Below the pieces are notes generated by a model. The model ran no database searches, had not been told where the DNA came from, and saw nothing but the letters and a program-made list of their open reading frames with translations. A program made the position numbers and the translations under genes. Below are positions 566-61,813 of a stretch of 64,000 nucleotides of DNA, one piece after another. The DNA is taken from assembly GCA_020630915.1 (NCBI GenBank), contig JAHDIF010000006.1:129241-193240 (forward strand), read 5' to 3'. Positions within the stretch are counted from its first letter, which is position 1. Every line of letters starts with the position of its first letter. This DNA comes from Dokdonia sp. GTDB lineage: Bacteria > Bacteroidota > Bacteroidia > Flavobacteriales > Flavobacteriaceae.

Positions 566-1348
566 CCCTCGTTGTCTGCGGGCCTCAAAAATTAAAATTC
601 CTGCTGCTACAGATACATTCATAGAGTCTATAGCGCCTTGCATTGGGATAATAATATTTTGCTTGCTGGCGATACGCCATTTTTCTGAGAGGCCTGTTGC
701 CTCTGTACCTACTACAATTGCTGAGGGACCTGTAAAGTTCTGAGTGTCGTATGCTACCGCTTCCTGTAGGATAGCACTGTAAATTGCAATATGGTGATTT
801 TGTAAAAATGAGATAATTTCGGAAGTTGTTCCAGTAGCAATTTGATTGGTAAATACACATCCAACGCTAGATCGTATAATGTTGGGATTATAGAGATCTG
901 TTTTAGGATTGGCTAGAATAAACGCATCTACACCCGCGGCATCTGCAGTGCGCAAGAGCGCCCCTATATTTCCAGGTTTTTCTGGAGCTTCGGCGATTAG
1001 GATTAATGGGTTTTTAGGTAAATCGAGGTCTGACAATAGTGTTTGTTTTGCTTTCGCGAAAGCAATAACACCTTCAGTACTACCTCTATAGGCTATTTTT
1101 TGGTATACTTCTTCACTTACTTCTACAATAACAGTATCTAGTGATAAATCTTGTATCTGAGATAGAGAACAAAGTGTACTACAATACAGTATTTTATGCA
1201 TTTCAAAACCACCACTAATAGCTAATTGTATCTCTCTATAACCTTCTATGATAAAAGCATTTTCTTTTTTCCTAGCACGGGATTTATCCTGTAGCAGGAG
1301 AATTTGCTTTATCAACGGGTTTTGAAGACTAGAAATAAAATTTGCCAT
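560..1348 (-). CDS. TrmH/SpoU family RNA 2'-O-methyltransferase
   Basis: This 262-residue protein is a SPOUT-fold RNA ribose 2'-O-methyltransferase that uses S-adenosylmethionine; the target (tRNA or 23S rRNA) cannot be fixed from sequence. Motif 1 is seen as PGNIGALLRTADAAG with the catalytic Arg, motif 2 as IVVGTEATGLSE and motif 3 as IPMQGAIDSMNVSVAAG. The N-terminal NPLIKQILLLQDKSRARKK resembles the SpoU substrate-binding domain. The frame is open 36 codons further upstream, but I chose the ATG at 1346-1348 (MANFISSLQ) because it starts the conserved fold and leaves room for the divergent lipoprotein gene at 1404. A TAnnTTTG-like element lies just upstream. The palindrome GCTTTCGCGAAAGC is read here as AFAKA. 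Confidence 0.9.
   Translation of the reverse strand: MANFISSLQNPLIKQILLLQDKSRARKKENAFIIEGYREIQLAISGGFEMHKILYCSTLCSLSQIQDLSLDTVIVEVSEEVYQKIAYRGSTEGVIAFAKAKQTLLSDLDLPKNPLILIAEAPEKPGNIGALLRTADAAGVDAFILANPKTDLYNPNIIRSSVGCVFTNQIATGTTSEIISFLQNHHIAIYSAILQEAVAYDTQNFTGPSAIVVGTEATGLSEKWRIASKQNIIIPMQGAIDSMNVSVAAGILIFEARRQRGF
1050..1063. repeat. GCTTTCGCGAAAGC palindrome, perfect copy 1
   Basis: Exact 14-bp palindrome inside the RNA methyltransferase gene, read there as Ala-Phe-Ala-Lys-Ala in the linker between the N-terminal domain and the SPOUT domain. Confidence 0.9.
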
Positions 1349-1352
1349 ATTA

Positions 1353-1360
1353 CAAAAGTA
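1353..1360 (-). promoter_or_regulatory. Putative -7 element (TAnnTTTG) for the RNA methyltransferase
   Basis: On the minus strand the sequence TACTTTTG ends five bases before the ATG, and TTG (plus-strand CAA at 1382-1384) lies 21 bases further upstream. This fits the Bacteroidota -33/-7 promoter pattern and would give a very short leader. It is a motif match only. Confidence 0.4.
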
Positions 1361-1403
1361 AGTCTTTTTAGTACCTTGCGACAAAGACACAAAACCATCA
1401 TTT

Positions 1404-2416: not shown

Positions 2417-3715
2417 CTACTGACCGTTTTGAGCCTTTGTATTATATCGCTTGTATAATTTGGTTTGATGTGTTTCGAGACTCACGTCCCTGCCTTGAAT
2501 AAAGGCTCTAGTGACATTATTAGTTCTCATATCAAGCGCATTTCCATCAGATATAAATAGTGTGGCGTCTTTGCCAGATTCTAATGTCCCTGTAGTTTTA
2601 TCAATACCCAAAATCTTTGCTGGGTTGATCGTTATCAATTTTAATGCTTCTTCATCACTCATCCCTTGTCCTGTGATCTGTCCCGCATAGAAAGGAAGGT
2701 TACGTACTTGCCAATACTCACCATCATATCCTAAAGCTACGGTTACCCCAGCATTTACAAGATCTATTGCAAACTTGTAATTATAATCATAGTCGTGATC
2801 TGAAATTGATGGTGTTTCTTGCACTCGCTGTAAAATGACAGATATATTTGCAGCCGCTAGCTCTTTTGCGACTTTAGGCGCTTCGTAGGCACCCACAAGC
2901 ACCAAATTTTTGATATTCATATCTCGTTTAAAATTGAGAATATCACGTATCTCTCTTTCACCATTTGCCGCTACGTATAAATTTTGAGCGCCAGAAACGA
3001 CACCTTTCATTGCCTCAAAGGCAAGGTTCTGGTCTGTATTGCCTTTCGCGTAAGCGGTCGCATTTTCCATAAAATTCTTTACCTCATCAATATCTTTTAC
3101 GTAGTTCTTATTAGGTTTAAAGCCAGGTTCTTCTCCTAGCCACCATCTACCACGCGTCATACTGCTAGGCCAGTTAAGCCATACTCCATCGTCTGCACGA
3201 TACGCTGCATCTTCCCAGTTCCAAGCATCTAGTTGCACCACAGAAGATGTTCCAGAAATACGCCCGCCCAAAGGTCTGGTTTGTGCCATAAGCACCCCAT
3301 TAGGACGCATACTTTCAACCACTTTAGACTCTGCATTATATGCTATTAACGCTCTCACGTGAGGAATCATATCTCCTATCTCATCATCATCATTAGAAGG
3401 TCTTACTGCACCTACTTCTACAAGGCCTAGGGTCGTATTTGTAGCTATAAAACCAGGGTATATGTGTTTTCCTTGTGCGTCAATAACGGTTCCTTTAGGA
3501 GCCATTTTAATCACTTTACCATCTGCAACAGTGGTTAATTTTCCATCTTCCATTACGATCACTGCATTTTCAATGATCTCCCCATTGCCTACGTGAGCTG
3601 TCGCTCCAGTTATGGTAATCGCTCCAGACTGTTCTGGTGCCGGTGTTTGCTGTGCTAGTGCCACTACAGAAAATAAGGCTACTAGACTTGTAATTATGTA
3701 TTGTCGTGTTTTCAT
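2417..3715 (-). CDS. Amidohydrolase-fold protein lacking the usual metal ligands
   Basis: This 432-residue exported protein (signal peptide ending VVALA|QQ) has the amidohydrolase layout: an N-terminal beta-sandwich (ATAHVGNGEIIENAVIVMEDGKL), a barrel, and the C-terminal ITINPAKILGIDKTTGTLESGKDATLFI typical of imidazolonepropionase-like enzymes. After the usual PGF, where HxH metal ligands should sit, it reads ATNTT, so no HxH is present. It may therefore be a non-catalytic partner of the larger amidohydrolase, which lies one base upstream in the same operon. The start ATG at 3713-3715 gives a good signal peptide. A near-copy of the 14-bp palindrome lies at 3043. Confidence 0.85.
   Translation of the reverse strand: MKTRQYIITSLVALFSVVALAQQTPAPEQSGAITITGATAHVGNGEIIENAVIVMEDGKLTTVADGKVIKMAPKGTVIDAQGKHIYPGFIATNTTLGLVEVGAVRPSNDDDEIGDMIPHVRALIAYNAESKVVESMRPNGVLMAQTRPLGGRISGTSSVVQLDAWNWEDAAYRADDGVWLNWPSSMTRGRWWLGEEPGFKPNKNYVKDIDEVKNFMENATAYAKGNTDQNLAFEAMKGVVSGAQNLYVAANGEREIRDILNFKRDMNIKNLVLVGAYEAPKVAKELAAANISVILQRVQETPSISDHDYDYNYKFAIDLVNAGVTVALGYDGEYWQVRNLPFYAGQITGQGMSDEEALKLITINPAKILGIDKTTGTLESGKDATLFISDGNALDMRTNNVTRAFIQGRDVSLETHQTKLYKRYNTKAQNGQ
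3043..3055. repeat. Near-copy of the 14-bp palindrome
   Basis: CTTTCGCGTAAGC, with one substitution and one edge base missing, lies in the smaller amidohydrolase gene and reads AYAKG on the coding strand. Confidence 0.5.
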
Positions 3716-6771: not shown

Positions 6772-7878
6772 TCACAAAGCTTCAGGAAAGTTTTTATTAT
6801 AGTTTACTAATAAAGCCACCATGTAGCTGTAGGTCCTCAAACCTTCTGGCTGATTGTTTGCCTTGAGATAACCCGTATAAAAGTATTTAAATAACGGTTC
6901 TAATGGATTGTCCATTTCATCCCAAAAAGCTCTAGATAATGCATAGTTTTCTAAAATTCCAGGGGTGATTTTATCTCTTAATAAAGCTCCCAGCTCTTTA
7001 TCTCTTCTATACAAATCGTTCAAGCAATACCTGAGTGCAAAGATACTTCCCGAATATTGAAAATAGGGATCGTCATTATTAAGCGTGGCTAGCACGGCTA
7101 TAAAATTTGCTTCATTTTCTTTAGCAAAACCAAGTTGATGTGCCTGCTCGTGACAACTTATCACAGGCCACCTATGATGCGGTACTAATCCATTTATCTG
7201 GGCTTCATTTGTAATTGGGTTTAAATATCCACTGTAGCCCATCACAGATAAAGGATAGCTCAATAATGATGTTTTTATACTCTTGGGAGGATAGTGCAAT
7301 TTTGGAAATTGAAGGGTAAGATTTTCATACCCATTAAGCGTAGTTTTAAATAAGTCCGCTTTCGCGAAAGCGATATACTTCCCATCCTCACCCTTGGTCA
7401 TCACCACCACCGCAGTCGAATCATTTATAGCAAGTTGCTCGTGCAAGGCATTACTTTTATCAATGAGTTTTTGCGTAAGCGTTATTAAATCTTCTGTCGT
7501 ATACTCTTTATCAATCTCAAGAGATTGATGTAATGGAAGTCTGTAATAATTGAGTCCCCACAAGAGGTGAAAAGCAAAATAAACAATAGATGCTATAGCG
7601 AGAATATTTATCAAAAAATCTTTCCAAAACCTCCTCTTATTTTTAAAAAATACAAAAAGGCTCTTTAAAATGAGAAAGACCAAAACGCTGTACATAATGT
7701 CTCCAAAAGAAAATGGCAACCACCCAAATGTGTATCGAAAGGCTTTTGAAATTATTGGATAAAACCTAGTGCTATAATACCTTTCTATAGTTTCGGGAAA
7801 ACGGCTCAATATACGCACAATGATCATTTGAACGAATAGCATTAACCCAACTATTAAGGTAATTTTCTTTTGATTCAT
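6772..7878 (-). CDS. DUF3810 membrane protein with HExxH motif
   Basis: This 368-residue protein has three N-terminal hydrophobic segments (about residues 7-25, 55-75 and 85-110) and a C-terminal soluble domain. The motif CHEQAHQLGFAKENEANF gives H243-E244 and H247 of an HExxH zinc site, with E256 as a likely third ligand, so it resembles a gluzincin peptidase. The overall pattern matches DUF3810, a family of unknown function found in Bacteroidota and Firmicutes. It stands alone between the amidohydrolase operon and the divergent rel gene. The palindrome at 7358 encodes AFAKA. The peptidase role is inference from the motif only. Confidence 0.85.
   Translation of the reverse strand: MNQKKITLIVGLMLFVQMIIVRILSRFPETIERYYSTRFYPIISKAFRYTFGWLPFSFGDIMYSVLVFLILKSLFVFFKNKRRFWKDFLINILAIASIVYFAFHLLWGLNYYRLPLHQSLEIDKEYTTEDLITLTQKLIDKSNALHEQLAINDSTAVVVMTKGEDGKYIAFAKADLFKTTLNGYENLTLQFPKLHYPPKSIKTSLLSYPLSVMGYSGYLNPITNEAQINGLVPHHRWPVISCHEQAHQLGFAKENEANFIAVLATLNNDDPYFQYSGSIFALRYCLNDLYRRDKELGALLRDKITPGILENYALSRAFWDEMDNPLEPLFKYFYTGYLKANNQPEGLRTYSYMVALLVNYNKNFPEAL
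7358..7371. repeat. GCTTTCGCGAAAGC palindrome, perfect copy 2
   Basis: Exact copy, extended to a 16-bp palindrome by flanking C and G (7357-7372). It lies within the DUF3810 gene and is read as AFAKA. Confidence 0.9.
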
Positions 7879-7999: not shown

Positions 8000-10210
8000 A
8001 TGGAACTTACACAAGAGTACATAGAAGCAGAGAATAAAGAACTTACAAGACAGTACAAAAAGCTGCTACGGATAAGTTATCAAACCCTTACCAAAGAGGA
8101 TAAGAAGATGATACGTAAAGCTTTTGAGATTGCTGTAGATGCCCATAAAGAGCAACGCAGAAAATCTGGAGAGGCATATATATTTCACCCGCTTGCAGTC
8201 GCTCAAATCGTGGCTAGTGAGATTGGACTGGACGCCACTTCTATTGCTGCCGCTTTATTACACGACGTTGTAGAAGACACAAGTTATACACTAGCAGATC
8301 TGGATCAATTATTTGGTGAAACAGTGGCTCGCATTGTGGATGGACTTACCAAAATTTCGAACCTAAAGAAAGACCGTGATGTATCCTTACAGGCAGAGAA
8401 TTTTAGAAAAATGCTTCTCACACTCAATGATGATCCTCGTGTAATTATCATTAAGATTGCAGACCGCTTGCACAATATGCAAACGATGGATGCTATGCGT
8501 CCAGACAAACAGCGTAAAATTTCTAGTGAAACTTTATATATATACGCTCCGCTGGCCCATAGAATGGGGCTATACAATATAAAAACTGAACTAGAAGATC
8601 TCAGTCTTAAATATACAGAACCAGAAGTATACAAAGACATTAAAAATAAAATAAAAGACAGCAAAGAGCAACAAGACAAATATATACGAGATTTTAAAAA
8701 GGTAATTCAAGATTCTTTGGATGCAGAAAGCTTGAACTATACCATACAAGGAAGACCCAAGTCTATTTATAGCATAAGAAGAAAGATACTAGCACAAGGA
8801 GTCACCTTTGACGAAGTTTATGACAAATTTGCTATTAGAATTATATATAAAAGTGACACTGCGAATGAGAAGTTTCTTGCTTGGAAAATTTATTCTATAG
8901 TTACAGATCACTTTAGACCTAATCCTACAAGGCTTAGAGATTGGATATCTTCTCCTAAGTCTACAGGTTACGAAGCATTACACATTACAGTAATGGGATT
9001 AAAAGGACGCTGGGTAGAAGTGCAAATACGATCAGAACGTATGCACGAGATTGCAGAAAAAGGGTATGCTGCACACTTTAAATATAAACAAGGTGACGAT
9101 GGAGATCGCGGCCTCGACGAATGGATTAACCGCTTACAAGAAGCTCTTGACAATCCAGATACCAGCGCTGTAGATTTCGTTGAAAATTTCAAGCTTAATC
9201 TTTACAATAAAGAAATTTTTGTATTCACACCACAAGGAGACCTAAAGTCATTACCTAAAGGGGCAACGCCGCTGGATTTTGCCTTTGGCGTACATACAGA
9301 AGTTGGTATGCGCACAAGAGGTGCTCGTGTAAACGGCAAGTTAGTCCCACTTAGCCAAGAACTCAAAAGTGGTGATCAAGTAGAGATAATGACCTCAGAA
9401 CACGCAAGACCTACCAATAACTGGTTGGATTATGCCACCACAGCAAGAGCAAGGGCAAAAATAAAATCGAGCCTTAAGGAAGAAAAAAAGACAATAGCAT
9501 CAGATGGAAAGATCACGCTTACGCGAAAGCTAAAATCTCAAAAAATACCATTTAATGAAAAGACCATTAATGAGCTCGTTTCTTTTTTCAAACTAAAAAC
9601 TAGTTTAGATTTATTTTACCGCGTAGGTATAGGAACCATAGACAATAAAATGATAAAGGAATTTGCTGCGCAACGCAGTAATGCTTTTATGAGTTTTATT
9701 AAAAATAAAATAAGAAAGCCCACCTCAACAGAAAATATAGACCGAGATGAAATTACTAACAAATACGATGATCTTGTTTTTGGAAGTGATGAGCAAAAAT
9801 TAGATTTTACCATGTCTAAATGCTGCAACCCAATACCCGGTGATCCAGTATTCGGGTTTACCACTATTAACGATGGCATAAAAGTTCATAAAAGCAACTG
9901 CCCCAATGCAATAGACCTAAGAAGTAAATATGCATATCGCATCATAAGTGCTAAATGGATAGATTCCAGCACTCAAGGACATACGGTAGAAATAAAGCTT
10001 ACAGGGATTGACAATCTAGGTCTTGTAAATCAAGTGACTCAAGAGATTTCTAATCATATGCACGTTAATATCAAGGGTATTAATTTTACAACTAATGGAG
10101 GTGTTTTTAATGGTAACATAACGGTAGTTGTGCAAAGTAAAACACATCTTAATAAGTTAATGGATAACCTTAAAAAAATCAATGGAATTGATAAAGTTAC
10201 GCGCGTATAA
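8000..10210 (+). CDS. rel: Bifunctional (p)ppGpp synthetase/hydrolase, RelA/SpoT family
   Basis: This 736-residue protein makes and degrades the alarmone (p)ppGpp in the stringent response. The HD hydrolase domain is intact: H63 (FHPLAVA), H88-D89 (LLHDVVEDT) and E92-D93. The synthetase domain follows (about 235-350; GRPKSIYSIRRK, FAIRIIY, STGYEALH), then TGS (about 400-465; FVFTPQGDLKSLPKGATPLDFAF), a Cys/His zinc-finger-like segment (SKCCNPIPGDPV near 606) and a C-terminal ACT domain. Length and order are standard for a long Rsh protein, and both activities look present. ATG 8000 is the first start in frame. It is followed after 29 bp by a Fur-family gene and then purA. A near-copy palindrome at 9517 falls between TGS and the helical region. 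Confidence 0.95.
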   Translation: MELTQEYIEAENKELTRQYKKLLRISYQTLTKEDKKMIRKAFEIAVDAHKEQRRKSGEAYIFHPLAVAQIVASEIGLDATSIAAALLHDVVEDTSYTLADLDQLFGETVARIVDGLTKISNLKKDRDVSLQAENFRKMLLTLNDDPRVIIIKIADRLHNMQTMDAMRPDKQRKISSETLYIYAPLAHRMGLYNIKTELEDLSLKYTEPEVYKDIKNKIKDSKEQQDKYIRDFKKVIQDSLDAESLNYTIQGRPKSIYSIRRKILAQGVTFDEVYDKFAIRIIYKSDTANEKFLAWKIYSIVTDHFRPNPTRLRDWISSPKSTGYEALHITVMGLKGRWVEVQIRSERMHEIAEKGYAAHFKYKQGDDGDRGLDEWINRLQEALDNPDTSAVDFVENFKLNLYNKEIFVFTPQGDLKSLPKGATPLDFAFGVHTEVGMRTRGARVNGKLVPLSQELKSGDQVEIMTSEHARPTNNWLDYATTARARAKIKSSLKEEKKTIASDGKITLTRKLKSQKIPFNEKTINELVSFFKLKTSLDLFYRVGIGTIDNKMIKEFAAQRSNAFMSFIKNKIRKPTSTENIDRDEITNKYDDLVFGSDEQKLDFTMSKCCNPIPGDPVFGFTTINDGIKVHKSNCPNAIDLRSKYAYRIISAKWIDSSTQGHTVEIKLTGIDNLGLVNQVTQEISNHMHVNIKGINFTTNGGVFNGNITVVVQSKTHLNKLMDNLKKINGIDKVTRV
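9517..9530. repeat. Near-copy of the 14-bp palindrome
   Basis: GCTTACGCGAAAGC, one substitution from the consensus, lies in the rel gene in a lysine-rich linker and is read as LTRKL. Confidence 0.55.
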
Positions 10211-12063: not shown

Positions 12064-13908
12064 ATGACCTACGTAAAATCAACATTGTATTGTGGTGGTA
12101 ATGCTTTCGCAAAAGCGGGCTCCCTCCTACTCCTACTTTTAATCACATACTCAACCTACGCTCAAGAACGCAAAGAGATAGACATTATCTCAGATGTCTC
12201 TCGGATAGACGAAGAAAAATACCCTGGTGCTTTTATTATGAATAAAACTACCAATCAAGTTTTTATTGAGCACGAAGGAATCGAAATGTGGTGTGATCTT
12301 GCCTTTCACTACAAAGAAGAAAATTTTGTAAAAGCCATTGGTAACGTGCGTATTAAGCAAGGAGATTCTGTCTCTATGCGCAGTCGATATGCAGAGTATA
12401 ATGGCAATACAAAGTTTGCATTTGCTCGAGGTAATGTCTGGCTCAAGAAAGATACAACTACAGTTACGACAGACACCCTGTACTTTGATCGTGTAAAGCA
12501 ACAAGCCTACTATCGGTCTGGAGGAACCGTAACATCACCCAATAGTAAAATTACCAGTCGCGTAGGGCGTTATTATATGGAAACAGACAAGATCTCTTTT
12601 GTCAGTAATGTAGAAGTAACAAATCCAGAATATGTAATAAATAGTGAGCAGCTGGACTTTTATAGCGCGAATGAGCACGCCTACCTTTATGGACCAACTA
12701 CCATTGTAAGTGACAGTTCTAAAGTGTATTGTGAACGGGGTTTTTATGACACAAAAAGGGATTATGGCTATTTTGTAAAAAACTCAAGGATTGACTATAA
12801 TAACAGGCAGGTTTTTGGTGATAGCCTGTTTTTTAATCGGGTTACAAATTTTGCCAGCGCCACAAATAATATTAGAGTTGTAGACACGCTCAACAATAGT
12901 GTAATTAAAGGTCATTATGCAGAGGTGTATCGCGATAAAGACTCTGTATTTATAACAAAGCGAGCTATCGCTATTACCGTTGAACAGCAAGACTCAGTTT
13001 ATATACACGGGGACAAACTTATAGTAACCGGTAAACCTGAAAACCGAATTGTGAGAGGATATTACAACGTAAAATTGTACAAAAGTGACCTTAGCGGAAA
13101 ATGCGACTCCATACACGTCAATCAAAAAACCGGCCTTACACAAATGATACGTCGCCCTATCTTATGGAGTGATAAAAGTCAGATTACAGGTGATAGCATT
13201 CATTTAATAAGTAATAACGAAACAGAAAAGCTAGACTCTTTAAAGGTATTTGACAACTCTTTTATCATACAAAAAGATAGTATCTCCGGATATAATCAGA
13301 TCAAAGGGCAAAAGCTTTTTGGTTTTTTTGATGATGAAAATCAACTGGAAAAAGTAGACATCGTAAACAATGCTGAGAGTATCATTTACATTCGCGAGGA
13401 TACAGGAGCATTGCAAGGAATTGACAAAAGCAAAAGCGCCACAATTACAATTACCTTTTTTGAAAAAGCTATTGATGAAGTCATTAAATACAAAAATCCT
13501 GGAGGAGATATCTGGCCAGAATCTCAATGGCTCGATCAACCTCAGGAACTCAAAGATTTTGAATGGCGTGGTGACGAACAACTCCTAAGCAAAGAAGATA
13601 TTTTTAAGGGAGAAGCCCCTTTTGAACTCACAAAAATAAAAGGAATCCCACTTCCAGAAATTGATGAGGATTTCTTTGCCCCTTCTGAGGAGGGCGTAAA
13701 CGCCTTGATACCAAGCACCTCTGAACTCACCATTGATGATCTCTCTCCCAGAAAAGAAGATGAACAACCTGTAGGAACTACTTCCAAGGATGAAGAACTT
13801 CTTAATGAACGAGAATCCGTACTTAATCGCAATAATGCCTCTGCCCAACAGCAAGAATACCAAAAGAAGTATGGTACTGGAACGATTAAAAAGAAAAAGA
13901 ATAACTAG
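12064..13908 (+). CDS. OstA/LptA-like exported protein
   Basis: This 614-residue exported protein has repeated OstA-type beta strands (for example VFIEHEGIEMWCDLAFHY, AIGNVRIKQGDSVSMRS, ARGNVWLKKDTTTVTTDTL), the fold of LptA/LptD N-terminal domains that form a slide for lipopolysaccharide. In Bacteroidota such long proteins are annotated as OstA-like and probably help LPS transport in the periplasm. The C-terminal ~120 residues are acidic and low-complexity, ending with a Lys-rich tail. The signal peptide is unusual: the n-region MTYVKSTLYCGGNAFAKAG contains AFAKA encoded by a near-copy of the palindrome (12103), followed by SLLLLLLITYSTYAQ. Nine bases separate it from the downstream aminotransferase. 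Confidence 0.85.
   Translation: MTYVKSTLYCGGNAFAKAGSLLLLLLITYSTYAQERKEIDIISDVSRIDEEKYPGAFIMNKTTNQVFIEHEGIEMWCDLAFHYKEENFVKAIGNVRIKQGDSVSMRSRYAEYNGNTKFAFARGNVWLKKDTTTVTTDTLYFDRVKQQAYYRSGGTVTSPNSKITSRVGRYYMETDKISFVSNVEVTNPEYVINSEQLDFYSANEHAYLYGPTTIVSDSSKVYCERGFYDTKRDYGYFVKNSRIDYNNRQVFGDSLFFNRVTNFASATNNIRVVDTLNNSVIKGHYAEVYRDKDSVFITKRAIAITVEQQDSVYIHGDKLIVTGKPENRIVRGYYNVKLYKSDLSGKCDSIHVNQKTGLTQMIRRPILWSDKSQITGDSIHLISNNETEKLDSLKVFDNSFIIQKDSISGYNQIKGQKLFGFFDDENQLEKVDIVNNAESIIYIREDTGALQGIDKSKSATITITFFEKAIDEVIKYKNPGGDIWPESQWLDQPQELKDFEWRGDEQLLSKEDIFKGEAPFELTKIKGIPLPEIDEDFFAPSEEGVNALIPSTSELTIDDLSPRKEDEQPVGTTSKDEELLNERESVLNRNNASAQQQEYQKKYGTGTIKKKKNN
12103..12116. repeat. Near-copy of the 14-bp palindrome
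   Basis: GCTTTCGCAAAAGC, one substitution, in the n-region of the OstA-like signal peptide (residues 14-18, AFAKA). Confidence 0.6.
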
Positions 13909-19003: not shown

Positions 19004-19004
19004 A

Positions 19005-19017
19005 TTTTCGCGAAAGC
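19005..19017. repeat. Near-copy of the 14-bp palindrome
   Basis: TTTTCGCGAAAGC, with the left end altered, in the intergenic region just after the terminator and 17 bp from the DPP III-like stop codon. Confidence 0.55.
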
Positions 19018-19033: not shown

Positions 19034-21064
19034 TTACAACACCCCATATCGCTTAGCATAGTCAAGCATCTGCCCTTCAAAGGTGGCGGGTTGCTGTACT
19101 TTGAATCCTGTAATCTTCTCACCTTCCATCACAGGAACGATTTCTGGGTTTACAAAACCACTATACGGCGCGCTTTTAAATTTGCTGTTACGCTCCAATA
19201 CTTCGGCATGTATTTTCTGATCTACTTTCACACCGTAGTTCTCTACAAGATCACGTGCTGCTTCATAATCTCCTTCTGAAGTGATGCGCTGTGTCTCACG
19301 TAATAACTGCCCAAAAATGTCTCGAAGCTTGGTGTAATCGTTAATGTTATAATACGTCTTTCCGTCTTTAGTAACCTTTTCTATCACATTCTCTGCCTGC
19401 CCTTTTTCAAAAGCCCAAGCACTCACCCACTGGCGGTTTACCATATGCGCTTCTTCTACATCATCACCCAATTCCAAACGAATTAACTGAGTTATCAGAC
19501 CGTTACGGATATACCCGTCGTAGGCCGCTTTTCCTGTCTTTTTCCAATCTGTTACCAGACCTAAGTCTTGTAGTTTTGGATCCATTAAATAGTAAAGTCC
19601 AAAAAGGTCTGCACGCCCTTCTTCTATGGTAGACTTGTATCTTTTAAGTGTTTCCTTAGGAGTGCCTACGCCTTCATTAATCTGTCCAGAAGCGTGTCCC
19701 ACCACTTCGTGAAGCGCTGTATGCAACTTATCTCCTAACTGTCCATACTCTTTTTCTAGAGCTACTTCTTCCTCATCGTGAGCAAATTCTTGTAGACGTC
19801 CAGATCCTCCAGCATTGTTATACGCATTGATGATGTTTCCTAGAGAAACAGACTTACTCCCGTGTGCCTGGCGTATCCAGTTGTTATTAGGTAGGTTTAC
19901 CCCTATAGGTGTACTTGGCGAAGCATCTCCTGCTTCTCCTGCGACGATTACCGTTTTGTAGGATACTCCTTTTACTTCTTTCTTTTTGTGTTCTGGCATA
20001 AGCGGCGAGTTATCTTCAAACCACTGCGCCTCATCAGAAAGGACTGCCATCTTTTTAGACATATCAAAGTCCTTTATTTGCACAATCGTTTCATAAGATC
20101 CTTTATAGCCCTTAGGGTCGTTGTACACCTCGATAAAACCATTTATCCAATCTATATTTCCTTCTGTAGAGGTAGCCCACGCGATACAGTAATCATCCCA
20201 TGTATCTAGACTTCCCGTTTTGTAGTACTCTATTAATAAACCAAGAGTTTCGGCTTGCTTTTCATTTTCGGCAACGCCCTTGGCTTTTTCTAACCAACCA
20301 ATGATATTATCTATAGCGGCTCCATACAGACCGCCACTCTTATATACTTGCTCTACAAGTTTTCCGTTTTCTTTTACTAGACGTGTATTAAGCCCTTTTT
20401 CTATAGGCTCTTTATCATCTACTTTAATAGCATCATAAAATGACTCTGCCTCTGCCGTTGTTACATCGGGCCCGTAAAAGTTAATGGCAGATTCTAATAC
20501 GATATCGGCATCTTTAGAAAGGTTTACTTTCTTTGCATCCTTGTCATTAAAGATGACGTCAAAAGGTTCTCCTGTAAGGTCAGTTTCTGTTGCTGCAAGC
20601 AAAGATTTTAAATAGTCTGGTGAGAAATCAGGCTTGAGCTTCGCATTACTATAGTGGTGATGAATCCCATTTGAGAACCAAACGCGCTTAAGGTACACCT
20701 CAAAGTTCTTCCAATCTTCTGAGGTTTTATCTCCTGTATAGTTTGCGTATACATTTTCTAGGGCCTTACGTATCGTTAGATTGTGACGATAGTTTTGCGC
20801 CCACATAATATCTCTCCCTGCAAGTCCTGCTTGCGTCATATAGTACACAAGCTTTTGTTCCTTAAGCGTAAGATCTTCAAATCCTGGGATTTGATAACGT
20901 AGGATTTTTAAATCTGCAAACTGCCCTACGGTGTAATCAAAATCTCCAGATGTTTTTTCTGTTTCTGCTTTCGCGAAAGCGTTCTCATCCTTCTTATTGT
21001 CTTCTCCACAGCTAAGTGCTATTAGCGCAGTAAGTCCTAAGGTGTATATAATCTTGCGTGTCAT
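19034..21064 (-). CDS. Dipeptidyl-peptidase III-like (M49) lipoprotein
   Basis: This 676-residue lipoprotein (LIALSC, Cys19) is of the M49 zinc metallopeptidase family, which removes dipeptides from peptide N-termini. The unusual M49 zinc motif HExxxH is present as HEVVGH (H452, E453, H457), and the second motif EEGRAD follows at about 481-486. Length matches bacterial DPP III proteins. It probably works in the periplasm or on the outer membrane in peptide utilisation. The palindrome at 20967 encodes AFAKA (residues 29-33) in the linker right after the lipid-anchored cysteine. Confidence 0.92.
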   Translation of the reverse strand: MTRKIIYTLGLTALIALSCGEDNKKDENAFAKAETEKTSGDFDYTVGQFADLKILRYQIPGFEDLTLKEQKLVYYMTQAGLAGRDIMWAQNYRHNLTIRKALENVYANYTGDKTSEDWKNFEVYLKRVWFSNGIHHHYSNAKLKPDFSPDYLKSLLAATETDLTGEPFDVIFNDKDAKKVNLSKDADIVLESAINFYGPDVTTAEAESFYDAIKVDDKEPIEKGLNTRLVKENGKLVEQVYKSGGLYGAAIDNIIGWLEKAKGVAENEKQAETLGLLIEYYKTGSLDTWDDYCIAWATSTEGNIDWINGFIEVYNDPKGYKGSYETIVQIKDFDMSKKMAVLSDEAQWFEDNSPLMPEHKKKEVKGVSYKTVIVAGEAGDASPSTPIGVNLPNNNWIRQAHGSKSVSLGNIINAYNNAGGSGRLQEFAHDEEEVALEKEYGQLGDKLHTALHEVVGHASGQINEGVGTPKETLKRYKSTIEEGRADLFGLYYLMDPKLQDLGLVTDWKKTGKAAYDGYIRNGLITQLIRLELGDDVEEAHMVNRQWVSAWAFEKGQAENVIEKVTKDGKTYYNINDYTKLRDIFGQLLRETQRITSEGDYEAARDLVENYGVKVDQKIHAEVLERNSKFKSAPYSGFVNPEIVPVMEGEKITGFKVQQPATFEGQMLDYAKRYGVL
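20967..20980. repeat. GCTTTCGCGAAAGC palindrome, perfect copy 3
   Basis: Exact copy in the 5' end of the DPP III-like gene, read as AFAKA in the post-lipobox linker. Confidence 0.9.
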
Positions 21065-37913: not shown

Positions 37914-37962
37914 CTACCAAACACAAATAAAACCAGTAATCTGAGATAGAAATAACAGTCGT

Positions 37963-44124: not shown

Positions 44125-44787
44125 TTAATACGTTTTTTGATAATCCTTTACTCCTGCTTCAATGCGCACCTTTAGATCATTTTCATCTGGTGGAATTGCA
44201 CAGGAATACCCCGTTGTATAAGCGCAATATGGATTATAGGCTTTATTAAAGTCTATCCATACAGTATTATCTTCAGCAATTTCGGTTACTAAAAGATCTA
44301 CATAACGACCACCACCATACGAACCGTCACCACTAGTGTAGTCCGTAAATCCTAGCAACAAATGGTCTTTGTATTTATGATTAGGTGTTGCAACAAACAT
44401 TGGATTTTGAAAAATTGTAAGTTCTTGCTCCTTCCCCTCAATTTGAAAAAACACTTTCCCATAGGTAGTATATACTCTTGGCACTCCTGTAGAGGTGGCC
44501 ATATCTACAGGTACTGGAGATGCTACCAGTTCAAATCTAGCCTTCACCCTAAACTCTTCGCTTATAGGCCAGAATTTTAGACCTTTAAATTTACGTAACT
44601 GCTTTTTGGACAAAATGGTACTATCTGGATTGGAATAGGTAGCGTTCAATTGTTCTTGATACAATTTTGCTTGAAGGCTTTGTTCTCCTAATGGCTGTGA
44701 ATTCACTTTCGCGAAAGCGGAATCACCCATCTCCTGCGCAAGTAATCCAGTTGTAAATATCAATAATAGAATGACTAGTTTTTTCAT
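44125..44787 (-). CDS. DUF1684 exported protein
   Basis: This 220-residue exported protein has the DUF1684 signature: FWPISEEFRVKARFEL, GKVFFQIEGKEQELTIF, LLGFTDYTSGDGSYGGGRYVD, then FNKAYNPYCAYTTGYSCAIPP. The family function is unknown. The frame is open seven codons upstream of the chosen start; ATG at 44785-44787 gives the clean signal peptide MKKLVILLLIFTTGLLAQ. The palindrome at 44706 encodes AFAK (residues 24-27) right after the cleavage site. Confidence 0.88.
   Translation of the reverse strand: MKKLVILLLIFTTGLLAQEMGDSAFAKVNSQPLGEQSLQAKLYQEQLNATYSNPDSTILSKKQLRKFKGLKFWPISEEFRVKARFELVASPVPVDMATSTGVPRVYTTYGKVFFQIEGKEQELTIFQNPMFVATPNHKYKDHLLLGFTDYTSGDGSYGGGRYVDLLVTEIAEDNTVWIDFNKAYNPYCAYTTGYSCAIPPDENDLKVRIEAGVKDYQKTY
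44705..44718. repeat. Near-copy of the 14-bp palindrome
   Basis: ACTTTCGCGAAAGC (first base differs) in the DUF1684 gene, read AFAKV just after the signal peptide. Confidence 0.7.
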
Positions 44788-46273: not shown

Positions 46274-47002
46274 ATGAGAACTATACTTTTTATTATTTTA
46301 ATCTTGGGACTTGCCTCCTGTGCAGACAATGCTAGTGAGAAAAATACCGCTTTCGCGAAAGCGCATCCAGCACTCCAGCCAGATCGTTATAACGTAGCGT
46401 TTTTGATTATGGATGGCACCTATAATACAGAGCTTACGGCGCCTTTTGATATTTTCCAGCACACCCAATATCGTGAGAATATTAAGCAAATGAACGTCTT
46501 TACAGTAGCAAATACCTTAAAACCTATTCGCACGTTCGAAGGTATGTACCTCCTACCCGATTTTGATTATACTACTACTGACCTTCCTAAAATTGATATT
46601 CTTGTCGTTCCCAGTGCAGAGCATCACCTAGATACGGACTTAGAAGATACCGTAATGATAAATTTTGTAAAACAAGTAGACAAAACAGCACTATTTATGA
46701 CCTCTCACTGCGACGGTGCTTTTGTTCTCGCAAAAGCGGGCTTGTTAGATGATAAAGTATCTACTACATTCCCTAGTGACATTGACAAGATGCGTGAGAC
46801 TTTCCCAGAATTAGATATTAAAAAAGAGGTGCTTTTTGTACACGATGGAAAATATATCACATCTGCTGGAGGCGCAAAAAGTTTTGAAGCTGCATTATAC
46901 CTTGCAGAACATTTATATGGGGCAGAAATTGCTAGAAGCCTAGCTGGAGGACTCGTTATAGATTGGAAGTTAGATGAAGTGCCACACTTAATTGTAAATT
47001 AA
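46274..47002 (+). CDS. DJ-1/PfpI family lipoprotein
   Basis: This 242-residue lipoprotein (LASC, Cys16) has a glutamine-amidotransferase-like DJ-1/PfpI domain. YNVAFLIMDGTYNTELTAPFDIFQ matches the start of GlxA-type domains, and TSHCDGAFVLAKAGLLDDK is the nucleophile elbow with the conserved Cys. Function is unknown; relatives include isonitrile hydratase-like and chaperone-like proteins. Secretion is unusual for the family. The palindrome at 46349 encodes AFAKA (residues 26-30) in the post-lipobox linker. It ends one base before the stop of the convergent polyprenyl synthetase gene. Confidence 0.88.
   Translation: MRTILFIILILGLASCADNASEKNTAFAKAHPALQPDRYNVAFLIMDGTYNTELTAPFDIFQHTQYRENIKQMNVFTVANTLKPIRTFEGMYLLPDFDYTTTDLPKIDILVVPSAEHHLDTDLEDTVMINFVKQVDKTALFMTSHCDGAFVLAKAGLLDDKVSTTFPSDIDKMRETFPELDIKKEVLFVHDGKYITSAGGAKSFEAALYLAEHLYGAEIARSLAGGLVIDWKLDEVPHLIVN
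46349..46362. repeat. GCTTTCGCGAAAGC palindrome, perfect copy 7
   Basis: Exact copy, flanked by C and G (16-bp palindrome), near the 5' end of the DJ-1/PfpI lipoprotein gene. Confidence 0.9.
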
Positions 47003-49076: not shown

Positions 49077-49090
49077 GCTTTCGCGAAAGC
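49077..49090. repeat. GCTTTCGCGAAAGC palindrome, perfect copy 8
   Basis: Exact copy in the intergenic region upstream of rlmN. Confidence 0.9.
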
Positions 49091-52580: not shown

Positions 52581-52661
52581 TCTGCTCTACGAGTATAAAT
52601 ATGATAAAAATAAAACTATTCCTTACAAACAATAGAATATCGGAATTGTATTCTAGTTTAT

Positions 52662-52674
52662 TTTTCGCGAAAGC
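52662..52674. repeat. Near-copy of the 14-bp palindrome
   Basis: TTTTCGCGAAAGC, left end altered, between two hairpins in the intergenic region before queA's 3' end. Confidence 0.55.
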
Positions 52675-55543: not shown

Positions 55544-57538
55544 TTATTTCTTTATTAGTACGAGTGGCGTTGTTTGTCTTTCTAGCATTTGCGTATAAAA
55601 AGATCTAATTGTTTCATACTCTGATGGTGGAAACAAGGTTCTATTTAATTTAAAGATACTCATTACTTGTATTACATTTTGGTTCTGAGATATCGTGAGG
55701 GAGTACTCGCCTAAATTATCTGTCATCAGAAGTTTAATAGGTTCTGGAATTTCTTGTAATGTATGTGTCTTAGGAACTTCAATATTAATAATTTTACGTT
55801 CTATAAAAGGGAATTTAAAATCTATAGGGGTTTCTCTAGTACTCGCCTTAAATGGGTTTTCATTTTCCTTTAAAAACAATAATGGTTGTATATACCACTT
55901 GTCATTTATGACTTCTAATAACTCTTGTGACTCAAATTTATAGGATATCTCTGCATTACTATCAAGATCACTTTTTAATGAAAAATCAGTTAGAGTTTCT
56001 AAATTATACTGATCCCTAAAGTAAGCTTCTTGAGTTGCCATAGGTTTATTACTAAATTTCTTTCTAAAGGCAATTTCATTATCACCTAGAAGTCGTTTCT
56101 TAAAAACACCTCGCGCTTTAGTATCTTCAGAAAAAGTAATATTTACTAGTGTCTGCTCTTGCACATGCTTTTTAGAAAAGAGATTGATTTTTTGGGAGCT
56201 TCCATCGGGACGTACCAATCTACCCTCCCAATTATGAACGTTTTCCGACAGCTGTCCAGGCTTTGCAAATCTTTCTGTTGCATCCAATAAAGTTAATCTA
56301 TCATTAAGCGCTACCGCCGCTAGGATATGATTAAAACCTTCCAAAGTAGGAAATATTGGCACTTTATAATTTTTTGTTGCAGAAAGTACGGGATGGGACG
56401 TAAGCCCTGCTTCTCTCAAAAGAGCGACGAGCAGTAAATTTACTTCTGCAGATGAGCCTGCCTTACTTTCGAACGCTTTTTTAAGAGATCTATCTACTCT
56501 ACTACGATATTTTCCATCCCAAGCGATGTTGTTTTTTACAAATTCATAAATGCTGTAAGCTCTATCTTTTTGGTTAGGATAGCTTTCGCGAAAGCGTTGT
56601 CCCTCTTCTTTTAGAAAGTTTGTTTTTAACAAAGGTTTTCCAAATCTATCCGATTCATTAAGCGTTTGTACCACTTCTTCCCAACTTGTAGCAAATCGTT
56701 TTTTCTTGCCTTGACTAAGCTCTGCAGAGGCAAGTTCAAAAATGATGGAAGATCTATAATTTTCTAAATTATTAGTGTAAATCTCTTCCTTAAGAGGTGG
56801 AATGTTCTGTTTTGAGTATGTATAAACCGCCTCTGTTATTGTCATATTTGCAATTCGAGTATTTTGAGTTTTTGTACCATAGGCTCCCTGCTGTCGAAAA
56901 GAAAAATTAAAGCTTTTTCTTTTGTTCTCTTGTTCCAAAGTACATCTGTACTTACCTTGATAATAGGTGTTAAATTCAAAAATCTCTGGGACTTTAACTT
57001 CTGCTTTATAGGATATTACGGGAACATCCTCTTGAAAAATAAGATCATCTATTTTCCAAAAGGGTGAAAAGACCTCATAACTATACTCGACGATGACACC
57101 TTCTTTTACATTGGGCATCGCAAAGCTTACTTGATCATACCGCTCACTGAGTGTAGTTTTAAAGATGCTTTTTTTATCAAGTTTAGTTTTCTTTAAAGCA
57201 CCATCTACTAACTCATAGGTGTAACCCTCTATATTATTCACCCTTTCTTCATCTGCACTTCTTTTATAGAGATTGATTGTTACGGTACCATAATCTAACC
57301 CGTTTGTTGTATTTATTTTTATAATATTATGGACTATTTTTTGAGCATACCAACCTTCTTCCCAATCGTTTAGTTTAAACTCCGAAAAGCGTTCTTTTTT
57401 TATAAAAAAAGCAGGGGTCTTTGCTTCAAAGTTAGAAGTTATATCAAATTGATCTGTTTTTAATTTTCCAATTTTAAAGTCTTGAGCGTCTACTAATACT
57501 GTAAAAAGGACTATAAGTGCCACTAAAATTTTACGCAT
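55544..57538 (-). CDS. DUF3857/transglutaminase-like exported protein, paralogue 3
   Basis: This 664-residue exported protein (signal peptide MRKILVALIVLFTVLVDAQ) has an N-terminal DUF3857 beta-sandwich, a transglutaminase-like core (about 330-440) and a C-terminal beta-rich domain. At the catalytic Cys position the core reads AGSSAEVNLLLVALLREAGL, so Cys is replaced by Ser, while FNHIL and LLDATE keep the His and Asp. This type of change is, as I recall, common in this branch, so it is probably a structural or binding protein. It is the third of three paralogues, one base after the second. The palindrome at 56582 reads FRES. Confidence 0.88.
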   Translation of the reverse strand: MRKILVALIVLFTVLVDAQDFKIGKLKTDQFDITSNFEAKTPAFFIKKERFSEFKLNDWEEGWYAQKIVHNIIKINTTNGLDYGTVTINLYKRSADEERVNNIEGYTYELVDGALKKTKLDKKSIFKTTLSERYDQVSFAMPNVKEGVIVEYSYEVFSPFWKIDDLIFQEDVPVISYKAEVKVPEIFEFNTYYQGKYRCTLEQENKRKSFNFSFRQQGAYGTKTQNTRIANMTITEAVYTYSKQNIPPLKEEIYTNNLENYRSSIIFELASAELSQGKKKRFATSWEEVVQTLNESDRFGKPLLKTNFLKEEGQRFRESYPNQKDRAYSIYEFVKNNIAWDGKYRSRVDRSLKKAFESKAGSSAEVNLLLVALLREAGLTSHPVLSATKNYKVPIFPTLEGFNHILAAVALNDRLTLLDATERFAKPGQLSENVHNWEGRLVRPDGSSQKINLFSKKHVQEQTLVNITFSEDTKARGVFKKRLLGDNEIAFRKKFSNKPMATQEAYFRDQYNLETLTDFSLKSDLDSNAEISYKFESQELLEVINDKWYIQPLLFLKENENPFKASTRETPIDFKFPFIERKIINIEVPKTHTLQEIPEPIKLLMTDNLGEYSLTISQNQNVIQVMSIFKLNRTLFPPSEYETIRSFYTQMLERQTTPLVLIKK
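56582..56595. repeat. GCTTTCGCGAAAGC palindrome, perfect copy 9
   Basis: Exact copy in the third DUF3857 gene, read in the FRES frame (QRFRESYPNQ). Confidence 0.9.
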
Positions 57539-59393: not shown

Positions 59394-59400
59394 ATATTAA

Positions 59401-61308
59401 TTATTTGGTTAGTATTATTTTTTGGTTATCACCTTTCGTGACCTTTCTTCTAAAAGATCGATAATTTTTATATTGTTCTCTGGGGTAAATACCTTCTCGT
59501 ATTTCGAGATATCTTGTGTATCTCAACTCTGTTTCATTAATTTTCTCAACTAAAAACTCATATTTCCCAAAGTCTTCTTCTATCCTAATGGCATCTGGAA
59601 TAAACTTTATACTATTAGACATTGGTATCTCTATAGTGACGATATCCTGGTAATTGTATCCTCTAGATATTACTAAAGGCTGTTTCCTTTCTTTATATCT
59701 TGATGGAACATAATTTGATCTATTAACAACATTAATAGGAACTATTATTTCTTCTCCAATCTCAGTCGCATAAGATTCTGCATCAAAAACCACACTCTCT
59801 GTAAAAAGCACTTGGTCTTTATTATTGTCTACCTCAATTGATTGAATTTCAATATTATCAATATAATCCCAATAATTTTTATAATACTTATTTCTATCTT
59901 TCTCATCTATTGATTCAAGACCATAATGTTGTCCATATAAAACTCCTGAAGATGTCATTTGCGCTTCTACTTTAATTCCGTGCTCTTCATTAAGCCTAAC
60001 TGTTCCTATTGTTGAAAATTTATTTTCATTAAGTTCATATTTTTTAGTCTTTATAATTTCTCCCCCTTCAGGTTTTATAACTAGTGCATTTCTATCATCT
60101 GTTGATGCTCCTATATAACCGAAAGGGACCTGCTGGTTTGTACATTCTAACCAAACTATACTTTCATCATTTTGAGGAAGGGCTAATATTACGTGATTAC
60201 CTTGAATAGCGGTAAAATTTTCTGTAATATCTTCTTTATCGTTGCTGGCATTTATAATGGTATAATAAGATTGAACACCTGCTACATCCATTAATGCTTT
60301 AGTATAATTTGTAAGTGCCTTACAATCACCATAACCTAACTCGTCTACTTCATTGGCCATCATTGGTTTCCAACCACCAATACCAACCTGAACACTAATA
60401 TATCTAGTTCTATCCTGCATATATTGATAAACTAGTTTTGCTTTCTCAACATCTGTTGGTACATCCTTTACAAGATCTATTATTTCTTGCTTTGTTGTTT
60501 CTGGTATATCATTAGTTCCTGCAAGCAAGCTTTCATTTATCCATTTTCCGAAAGTAGACCAATCTTTACCTTCTCCTTTGACTCCTTTTAGTGAGAAATA
60601 ATTCAACCCAAATAATACTTGTGTGAAAAATTTCTTTTTTGACAAACCCAAGTCTTCTGGAATAAGCGCCTTAACATTATTGGAAGAAATATTAATAACA
60701 TTTTCCGTTTGTGTTATTTGCAAAGAATTTTCGTCATTATTTATGGCTTTATATTTAATTTCCAAATCTGGTGCAGCTCCAATTGTATACTCACTATTTA
60801 TAATGGCCGAATAATAATCTGAAACCGGAAAATAAGGGCTAATAAAGGCCGTAGTATTAGACTCTACTTTAGATTCAAACACTGCTATATATGGGTAACT
60901 CTTAGGGGAGTAATCAGCCACGAGCACTCTAGACTCTGAATAAAGTGTTCCTCCAGCTACTGCACTGTAATCTTGAAAATCTCTTTTTTTATAATTTTTC
61001 AACTCCTCTCCAGATTTGTCATATATAGAGAGCCTCACTTCTTTAACCTTTATACTTTCATCATAAGCTTCGTAAGCATTAACAGCTTGATTACCATTTT
61101 TATTAAATACTACAACGGCACGATACTTTGTTATGATCTGTTTATCAATTTCGGGTATTTCAACTTTTATTTTCTCTTCTAGGACAACACTATTGGCATT
61201 CTCCATCAATGAAGGGTCAATATCTTCGATCCCTAGCGAGGGTATTTGACTCAAAAGATTAAATTGAATAAAAAGAAAGAAGGATAGAAAAGAAAAATAC
61301 TTAATCAT
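59401..61308 (-). CDS. DUF3857/transglutaminase-like exported protein, paralogue 1
   Basis: This 635-residue exported protein (signal peptide ending FNLLSQ) is the first of three DUF3857/transglutaminase-like paralogues. DUF3857 is seen in TKYRAVVVFNKNGNQAVNAYE. The core has GYGDCKALTNYTKALMDVAG with the Cys and GNHVILALP with the His; the Asp position reads WLECTNQ, with Glu. It is the most active-looking of the three. The upstream region is 52 bp, A/T-rich, before the dtd stop codon, so the set may have its own promoter or read through from rsgA-dtd. Confidence 0.88.
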   Translation of the reverse strand: MIKYFSFLSFFLFIQFNLLSQIPSLGIEDIDPSLMENANSVVLEEKIKVEIPEIDKQIITKYRAVVVFNKNGNQAVNAYEAYDESIKVKEVRLSIYDKSGEELKNYKKRDFQDYSAVAGGTLYSESRVLVADYSPKSYPYIAVFESKVESNTTAFISPYFPVSDYYSAIINSEYTIGAAPDLEIKYKAINNDENSLQITQTENVINISSNNVKALIPEDLGLSKKKFFTQVLFGLNYFSLKGVKGEGKDWSTFGKWINESLLAGTNDIPETTKQEIIDLVKDVPTDVEKAKLVYQYMQDRTRYISVQVGIGGWKPMMANEVDELGYGDCKALTNYTKALMDVAGVQSYYTIINASNDKEDITENFTAIQGNHVILALPQNDESIVWLECTNQQVPFGYIGASTDDRNALVIKPEGGEIIKTKKYELNENKFSTIGTVRLNEEHGIKVEAQMTSSGVLYGQHYGLESIDEKDRNKYYKNYWDYIDNIEIQSIEVDNNKDQVLFTESVVFDAESYATEIGEEIIVPINVVNRSNYVPSRYKERKQPLVISRGYNYQDIVTIEIPMSNSIKFIPDAIRIEEDFGKYEFLVEKINETELRYTRYLEIREGIYPREQYKNYRSFRRKVTKGDNQKIILTK

Positions 61309-61360
61309 TAAAAAAAATTAAGCATACAATGTACTCATAGTACTAAATAATACCAAATAT

Positions 61361-61813
61361 TTAATTACGATTTAATGAATCCATAACAATGGTCACAGGT
61401 CCATCATTTACTAGGGCTACCTTCATGTCTGCCCCAAAAATACCTGTTTGAATATTTTTGGCAAGCTTTCGCGAAAGCGTACTTACAAAATCCTCATACA
61501 ATGGAATGGCAATTTCTGGTCTGGCAGCCTCTAAGAAAGAAGGTCTATTTCCTTTTTTTGTACTGGCATATAAAGTAAACTGACTCACCACAAGAACTTC
61601 TCCCTCTATTTGCTCTAACGACCAATTCATTGCTCCTTGAGCATCATTAAAAACTCGCATTCCCTTTATCTTATTTGTAAGCCATTCTATATCTTCTTGA
61701 GTATCTGTAGTTGTGATACCTAGCAGTATCATAAAGCCCTTATTAATTTGAGCTACAACTTTATCATCAATCGTCACAGAAGCTTCAGAAACGCGTTGTA
61801 TAACTACTCTCAT
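61361..61813 (-). CDS. dtd: D-aminoacyl-tRNA deacylase
   Basis: This 150-residue proofreading enzyme removes D-amino acids (and glycine mis-charged on tRNA-Ala) from tRNA. Family motifs are SQFTLYAST with the catalytic-site Gln/Thr region, RPSFLEAA and the C-terminal NDGPVTIV. Length is standard. It begins 3 bp after rsgA in the same direction. The palindrome at 61465 is read LSRK here, in a helix near the C-terminus. Confidence 0.97.
61465..61478. repeat. GCTTTCGCGAAAGC palindrome, perfect copy 10
   Basis: Exact copy in dtd, read in the LSRK frame ([10 protein letters not shown]), showing that the word occurs in the third possible frame. Confidence 0.9.

What the first reader, a model, noticed from the sequence alone, without database searches (positions are those of the whole stretch)
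1050..61478. A 14-bp perfect palindrome, GCTTTCGCGAAAGC, is scattered across the window
Exact copies start at 1050, 7358, 20967, 25728, 33420, 37900, 46349, 49077, 56582 and 61465, about one per 6.4 kb. Near-copies lie at 3043, 9517, 12103, 19005, 40819, 44705 and 52662, with a weaker one near 46730. A given 14-mer is expected about 0.0002 times in 64 kb of random sequence. It occurs in genes of unrelated function, in all three coding frames (AFAKA, LSRK, FRES), and in intergenic DNA, so protein selection cannot explain it. It has no orientation, like the cyanobacterial HIP1 octamer, and could be a site for a chromosome-organising protein, a modification system or DNA uptake. I know of no described role in this group.
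Basis: partly seen in the sequence, partly recalled or inferred. Interest (0 to 1): 0.78.

Follow-up and report, generated by a model that had tools for sequence, protein, structure and literature searches.

The report
Genome-wide 14-letter palindrome, probable uptake signal
Marine bacteria of the genera Dokdonia and Nonlabens and one unnamed relative carry the same exact 14-letter mirror-image DNA word hundreds of times, spaced a few thousand letters apart and kept in place as species diverge, with many of the statistical marks of the 'self' tags that some bacteria use to recognise DNA of their own kind.

Summary
GCTTTCGCGAAAGC occurs 10 times exactly in the window and 685 times in its 2.97-Mb Dokdonia genome; order-1 to order-3 Markov models expect under 0.001 in 296-400 kb samples holding 62 and 100. 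The 18 genomes searched in the genus have 369-905 copies. Three Nonlabens genomes and one of genus g206 have 408-664; 391 of the 397 family genomes searched have 0-19.

The word is strict (62 exact to 17 one-mismatch copies; 100 to 8), lies between C-poor left and G-poor right arms, is enriched outside genes, rarely repeats within 1 kb (0 of 188 spacings, 31 expected; 4 of 99, 23 expected), and is conserved while its flanks diverge. Two island-bearing stretches are poor in it. Three methyltransferase families or an extra ParB do not account for it.

Best reading: a palindromic DNA uptake sequence, by published marks of Haemophilus/Neisseria uptake sequences (PMC1626085), in a family with its own transformation machinery (PMC8459023). 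The reader protein is unknown; a chromosome-organising site is the main rival. Nothing was tested at the bench.

The parts
1050..1063 (.). exact copy, in an SpoU-family rRNA methylase gene (frame AFAKA)
   Evidence: the g206 ortholog has the exact word at the same place
7358..7371 (.). exact copy, in a DUF3810 gene (AFAKA)
20967..20980 (.). exact copy, near the start of a peptidase M49 gene, just after a lipoprotein-like signal (read by eye; AFAKA)
25728..25741 (.). exact copy, in a Y_Y_Y-domain protein gene (FRES)
33420..33433 (.). exact copy, at the start of a GH16 glycosidase ORF, possibly just upstream of its true start
37900..37913 (.). exact copy, intergenic, between a GH149 and a GH17 gene
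46349..46362 (.). exact copy, in the N-terminal linker of a DJ-1/PfpI gene with a lipoprotein-like signal (read by eye; AFAKA)
49077..49090 (.). exact copy, intergenic, upstream of rlmN (minus strand)
56582..56595 (.). exact copy, in a DUF3857/transglutaminase gene (FRES)
61465..61478 (.). exact copy, in a D-Tyr-tRNA deacylase gene (LSRK)
9517..9530 (.). one-mismatch copy in spoT/relA; the aligned place is exact in G012 and one base off in G011 and G015
12103..12116 (.). one-mismatch copy
40819..40832 (.). one-mismatch copy
44705..44718 (.). one-mismatch copy
3042..3055 (.). two-mismatch copy
19004..19017 (.). two-mismatch copy
52661..52674 (.). two-mismatch copy

Best explanation
The word is a palindromic DNA uptake sequence (a 'self' tag for natural transformation). 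SHOWN here: a strict 14-bp core; composition-biased arms on both sides; hundreds of copies per genome; copies kept at orthologous places while flanks diverge (one region examined); near-exclusion of a second copy within about 1 kb; few copies in the two island-bearing stretches examined. INFERRED: a receptor at the cell surface, probably two-fold symmetric, binds the core, and the G/T-rich, C-poor arm 5' of the core on each strand helps to bend or open the duplex. Fragments with the tag enter and recombine more often, so alleles that bear it spread (molecular drive). A second tag on the same few-kb fragment adds little, which would give the regular spacing. The reader protein was not identified.
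For: [quoted passage not shown] clade-specific variants (abstract passage). Here: exact to one-mismatch 62:17, 100:8, 43:5 and 65:13 in four samples although 42 one-mismatch words are possible; 0 of 188 spacings under 1 kb against 31.1 expected in nine sets, 4 of 99 against 22.9 in G017; 21 of 62 and 59 of 100 copies outside predicted genes although 92% and 87% of the DNA is coding by a crude ORF caller; all 14 bases kept in 84% of 155 orthologous site pairs at 75-85% pair identity against 7.3% of 1,086 control windows, while the site flanks are only 68% identical; substitution intermediates without gaps in spoT; presence in Dokdonia, g206 and Nonlabens. Stretches L155 and L156, with integrases and restriction-modification genes, have 1 and 2 copies per 20 kb against a mean of 5. 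Two cultured phages of a Nonlabens host have none (L438 whole, L439 30,000 of 35,652 bases), while two motif-bearing viral contigs carry lysogeny-type genes. Riemerella columbina prefers its own DNA (PMC7965970, section 16), and R. anatipestifer has a transformation machinery of its own (PMC8459023, section 19 and passages); its DUF5689 component is in 60 of 60 family genomes tested.
Against: No report of competence in Dokdonia or Nonlabens was found (one search lists one paper with 'Dokdonia' and 'DNA uptake', on another subject; no such search was made for Nonlabens). Uptake sequences in the source read are not palindromes and are denser, about 1 per kb, against 1 per 3.7-6.8 kb here. DUF5689 is also in motif-poor genomes, and its tree does not group the motif-bearing genera, so no reader gene is tied to the word. 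Arms on both sides are unlike Neisseria, which has none, and Haemophilus, which has them on one side. Leeuwenhoekiella, in the same SpoT clade, has only 6-9 copies although it has DUF5689.
Confidence: 0.5

Rival explanations
1. Chromosome-organising site: a dimeric DNA-binding protein binds the palindrome about every 4-7 kb and arranges or segregates the nucleoid.
For: Palindromic 14-bp core fits a dimer; regular spacing; no clear ori/ter bias in 20 stretches of G017, so it would act chromosome-wide; prophages may adopt it.
Against: One chromosomal ParB per motif-bearing genome tested (G011 also has a 616-aa relative, of a size that motif-poor genomes share); helix of Dokdonia and g206 unchanged, Nonlabens changed at two positions. 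The consensus is stricter than published for intracellular regulators (PMC1626085). Gaps of up to 23 kb without a site exist. No protein identified; families other than PF02195 were not searched.
Confidence: 0.23
2. Recombination or repair hotspot (Chi-like): read from either side, it switches a helicase-nuclease and loads RecA on the G/T-rich strand 5' of the core.
For: Arms 5' of the core are C-poor and G/T-rich on both strands; that RecA prefers G/T-rich DNA is recalled, not looked up. Density of 1 per 3.7-6.8 kb. AddB-type genes (PF12705) present.
Against: AddB-type genes are in all 7 genomes tested, motif-rich or not, and are only 46% identical between two Dokdonia genomes. Known Chi sites are short and not palindromic (recalled). 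Two phages of a Nonlabens host have no copy in the stretches held.
Confidence: 0.13
3. HIP1-type word created or kept by a DNA methyltransferase and a linked repair bias.
For: Palindrome with many copies, as HIP1 in cyanobacteria, where a matching methyltransferase is present (PMC4390886: abstract, part 1 of 3 of the discussion, passages).
Against: PF00145 is missing in 9 of 17, above-cutoff PF01555 in 15 of 18 and PF02086 in 8 of 18 motif-rich genomes; G009 and G273 have none of the three. [quoted passage not shown] here one-mismatch copies are few at every position. Other methyltransferase families untested.
Confidence: 0.05
4. Mobile repeat, transcription terminator or compositional artefact.
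For: The core can form a hairpin and is repeated.
Against: Copies share no fixed sequence beyond the core and a consensus of about 4 bp per side; they occur inside genes in all frames; substitution intermediates without gaps are seen in spoT; the right arm is A-rich, not a T-run; the reversed control word has 0 copies in all 39 genomes and 1 copy in 1 of 397 genomes.
Confidence: 0.03

Closest known systems
USS of Pasteurellaceae (AAGTGCGGT and ACAAGCGGT types)
   Same: strong consensus, regular spacing, non-coding preference, flanking composition motifs, clade-specific types, origin by substitution (PMC1626085: passages and sections 3 and 7)
   Different: not palindromic, 9-bp core, AT-rich motifs on one side, about 1 per kb, uptake function shown by experiment
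DUS of Neisseriaceae (GCCGTCTGAA)
   Same: similar genomic marks; integrative elements have atypical DUS distributions (PMC7371117, abstract only)
   Different: not palindromic, no flanking motifs, receptor ComP known (title of a reference cited in PMC7965970)
HIP1 of cyanobacteria (GCGATCGC)
   Same: highly iterated palindrome without orientation
   Different: 8 bp, one-off copies common in many strains, tied to methyltransferases (PMC4390886); here 14 bp, strict, none of three tested methyltransferase families required
Noc-binding sites and parS (recalled)
   Same: 14-16 bp palindromes
   Different: about ten-fold fewer copies (recalled), bound by ParB-family proteins; no extra Noc-like ParB seen here

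Membership tests
DNA uptake sequence (DUS/USS) | fragments with the word are taken up or transformed better | not testable with these tools
   needs a transformation or uptake assay
[quoted passage not shown]
   62:17, 100:8; 43:5; 65:13
DNA uptake sequence (DUS/USS) | more regular spacing than random | tested here: met
   CV below the random mean in all nine sets, g206 at the border (P 0.05); 0 of 188 spacings under 1 kb
DNA uptake sequence (DUS/USS) | enriched in non-coding DNA but frequent in genes | tested here: met
   21 of 62 and 59 of 100 outside predicted genes; crude ORF caller
DNA uptake sequence (DUS/USS) | arises by point substitution, not insertion | tested here: met
   intermediates without gaps in spoT; few cases examined
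DNA uptake sequence (DUS/USS) | host is naturally competent, with an identified receptor | tested here: inconclusive
   DUF5689 transformation protein in 60 of 60 genomes, motif-rich or not; its tree does not follow the motif
DNA uptake sequence (DUS/USS) | density about 1 per kb | tested here: not met
   1 per 3.7-6.8 kb; a described trait, not a defining one
HIP1-type palindrome | a cognate DNA methyltransferase in every genome with the word | tested here: not met
   for PF00145, PF01555, PF02086; other families not tested
ParB/Noc-type organiser site | extra Noc-like ParB-family protein in motif-bearing genomes | tested here: not met
Chi site | recognised by the AddAB or RecBCD of the host | not testable with these tools
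   AddB-type genes present in 7 of 7 genomes

The most novel reading that the evidence does not exclude
As far as I know the first DNA uptake sequence in the phylum Bacteroidota, and the first palindromic one: a 14-bp core with symmetric composition arms, read by an unknown receptor of the Flavobacteriaceae transformation machinery, shared by lineages that are not clearly sisters, nearly lost in Leeuwenhoekiella, and perhaps with other words in other genera of the family.
Probability: 0.42. Interest if true: 0.88.

Novelty: new variant of a known kind. Interest (0 to 1): 0.8.

Why it matters
Uptake sequences were described as not known outside Pasteurellaceae and Neisseriaceae (PMC1626085, dated 2006). 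A further, unrelated case with a palindromic, longer and stricter word would allow a test of whether such words arise by molecular drive, and would show how gene flow is gated in marine Flavobacteriaceae. If it is instead a chromosome-organising site, several hundred strict sites per genome would be an unusual architecture. In either case the word may help to tell resident from recently acquired DNA in Dokdonia and Nonlabens.

Tried and rejected
ParB/Noc paralog: none Noc-like. C5, N6/N4 and D12 methyltransferases: not required. AddB co-evolution: no signal in 7 sequences, each trimmed to its first Met. Hairpin extension of the arms: symmetric positions pair about as expected from composition alone, with a slight excess at the first four (for example 0.69 against 0.62). 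Ori/ter bias: none evident in 20 evenly spaced stretches of G017. DUF5689 as reader: present in all 60 genomes tested; tree uninformative, and in 4 of 35 rows the script picked a neighbouring ORF (G272, G287, G162, G266). Phage 'self-tag' against host defence: two phages of a Nonlabens host lack the word in what was fetched, and the 22 other loci fetched with a motif-bearing virus have none in the 13.6-23.3 kb held of each. A survey of the family for other iterated words covered 20 new stretches plus nine held ones instead of the 40 planned; only G044 stood out clearly, and the survey needs four copies, so it missed the known word in the Nonlabens stretch L136, which has three. Word searches in papers (listings only): GCTTTCGCGAAAGC 0 papers; TTTCGCGAAA with 'genom' 8, none on this by title; Dokdonia+palindrom 5; Dokdonia+'DNA uptake' 1; Nonlabens+palindrom 7; none describes it by title or abstract start. 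One search listed 20 of 9,252 papers, none with Nonlabens.

Labels recalled and from no call: Noc and parS details, Chi lengths, RecA preference. g206 is unnamed.

Full report
OBSERVATION. The ten exact copies and seven near-copies are in the window (three near-copies lie one base lower than stated, and the weak one near 46730 is not found with up to two mismatches). Shuffles expect 0.06 matches with up to two mismatches; 17 are seen. The window lies in a 2,967,236-base assembly with 685 exact copies; the word read backwards has none.

DISTRIBUTION. The 18 genomes searched in the genus (own included) have 369-905 copies and the 21 others of that search none. In 397 family genomes of 237 genera, six hold hundreds: two Dokdonia (685, 857), three Nonlabens (578, 664, 609) and one of genus g206 (408); the other 391 have 0-19. 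Among 20 genomes reached through matching loci, the five titled Nonlabens have 553-701 and 'Flavobacteria bacterium BBFL7' 551; one MAG (G439) has 89 and may be mixed, since it has two SpoT-like hits. A SpoT tree of 38 rows puts g206, Leeuwenhoekiella (G176, 9 copies) and five Dokdonia in one fully supported clade with g206 outermost (94/80 for Leeuwenhoekiella + Dokdonia). This means loss in Leeuwenhoekiella or parallel gain. Nonlabens falls elsewhere, but the deep forks are weak. Some sites are shared by g206 and Dokdonia, as in the window's SpoU-type gene and in a signal peptide beside parB, where 7 of 8 Dokdonia shown have it. This favours loss, though parallel gain at permissive places is possible. 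200 kb of Leeuwenhoekiella holds 1 exact and 1 one-mismatch copy, with a slight excess of three-mismatch copies over a rotated control (5.5 against 2.0 per 100 kb).

ANATOMY. The core is strict: exact to one-mismatch copies are 62:17 in 295,537 bases of G000 and 100:8 in 400,000 bases of G017, 43:5 in Nonlabens, 65:13 in g206. In G017, 100 of 106 TTCGCGAA octamers lie in the full word. The extended consensus is about TTAC-core-GTAA. In the left arm, C is 0.04-0.09 at 5-18 bp from the core and 0.12-0.14 at 19-30 bp, against about 0.2 far away, with G and T raised; the right arm mirrors it. This holds in coding and non-coding copies, in Nonlabens, more weakly in g206, and in 29 distinct viral copies. 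Symmetric arm positions pair about as composition predicts, so a longer stem is not indicated.

PLACE. 41 of 62 (G000) and 41 of 100 (G017) copies lie inside predicted genes, in all three frames, frame AFAKA most often; 92% and 87% of the samples are coding by a crude ORF caller. Some AFAKA copies form what look like signal-peptide ends (FFSAFAKAQE) or linkers after lipoprotein-like signals (read by eye). Spacing is over-regular: 4 of 99 spacings under 1 kb in G017 against 22.9 expected, and 0 of 188 against 31.1 in nine other sets from Dokdonia, Nonlabens and g206. G017 shows no ori/ter trend: 20 stretches hold 1-7 copies each.

CONSERVATION. In one region (SpoT) of 13 Dokdonia genomes, at 75-85% pair identity, all 14 bases are kept in 83.9% of 155 site pairs against 7.3% of 1,086 control windows; the 60 flanking bases at sites are 68% identical against 78% at controls. 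At 60-75% identity it is 38.1% of 134 against 1.6% of 1,075, and at 85% or more 90.6% of 64 against 38.0% of 355 (pairs are not independent). In spoT, aligned forms run from unrelated codons through two- and one-mismatch forms (G016; G000, G011, G015) to the exact word (G012), these without gaps.

FOREIGN DNA. The poorest of the 20 stretches, L155 and L156 (1 and 2 copies), hold integrases and restriction-modification genes; a further stretch, L302, with a 4,431-aa gene, has 2. A copper-efflux-type island (named by eye from its ORFs) appears to have carried copies into other Flavobacteriaceae: a pair 933 bp apart recurs in Altibacter, Aquimarina and others, compared by spacing only. One virus with 4 copies in 16 kb has an integrase, another a CI-like repressor and a transposase; other motif-bearing viruses were not checked for lysogeny genes. 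The 22 other loci fetched with the first have none. Two cultured phages of a Nonlabens host have none (L438 whole, L439 30,000 of 35,652 bases).

MECHANISM. The genomic marks largely match those published for uptake sequences (PMC1626085, Background and section 7 read), including the strong consensus described there as unlike sites of regulatory proteins; density and the palindrome do not. The family has its own transformation machinery (PMC8459023, section 19 and passages), and one member prefers its own DNA; the top words of up to 10 bp listed by its authors are AT-rich (PMC7965970, section 16). A machinery gene, DUF5689, is in 60 of 60 genomes, so it permits but does not discriminate. I therefore favour a palindromic uptake sequence at 0.5. 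A methylation-coupled HIP1-like origin is unlikely: PF00145 is missing in 9 of 17, above-cutoff PF01555 in 15 of 18 and PF02086 in 8 of 18 motif-rich genomes, and G009 and G273 lack all three.

OTHER WORDS. Genus g28 (G044) has a different iterated octamer, TTCCGAAG: 52 in 60 kb against 4.9 expected. GCTTCNGAAGC is enriched over its reversed control in several genera (100 against 9 and 71 against 8 in g28, 73 against 0 in g79, 57 against 1 in Altibacter, 52 against 3 in g55, 45 against 3 in g130) and is rare (1-4) in the five motif-bearing genomes of that search. Against reading these as dialects: TTCCGAAG is less strict (52 exact to 148 one-mismatch) and is not kept apart (many spacings under 500 bp), and codon effects were not excluded.

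Noticed in passing
L140, L478, L479 (genome G044): Another iterated word, TTCCGAAG, about 0.9 per kb, 52 against 4.9 expected in 60 kb, less strict and not regularly spaced; GCTTCNGAAGC is enriched genome-wide in g28, g79, g117 (Altibacter), g55, g130 and g23.
   Followed up: partly
L043:115-5478: Copper-efflux-type island (TolC-like protein, metal-binding regulator, multicopper oxidase; named by eye) in Aquimarina with two copies of the word 933 bp apart; the same spacing recurs in at least four other Flavobacteriaceae genomes, which suggests transfer from a motif-bearing donor.
   Followed up: partly
window 33409-39246: Glucan-related cluster: GH16, GH149 beta-1,3-glucan phosphorylase and GH17 genes in a row.
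   Followed up: no
L438, L439: Phages P12024S and P12024L of a Nonlabens host have no TCGCGA at all in the stretches held (35,700 and 30,000 bases).
   Followed up: no
L302:1426-14721: A 4,431-aa gene in G017 with no copy of the word inside; one of the longest gaps between sites seen in that genome.
   Followed up: no
L376:4, L377:44: In Leeuwenhoekiella, TAAAACGTTTTA occurs 5 times in 200 kb; two copies are at contig ends in the same context, so part of this is probably a repeat element.
   Followed up: no
L415:357-1373: A motif-bearing virus with a recombinase-type integrase; the 22 other loci fetched with it lack the word.
   Followed up: partly
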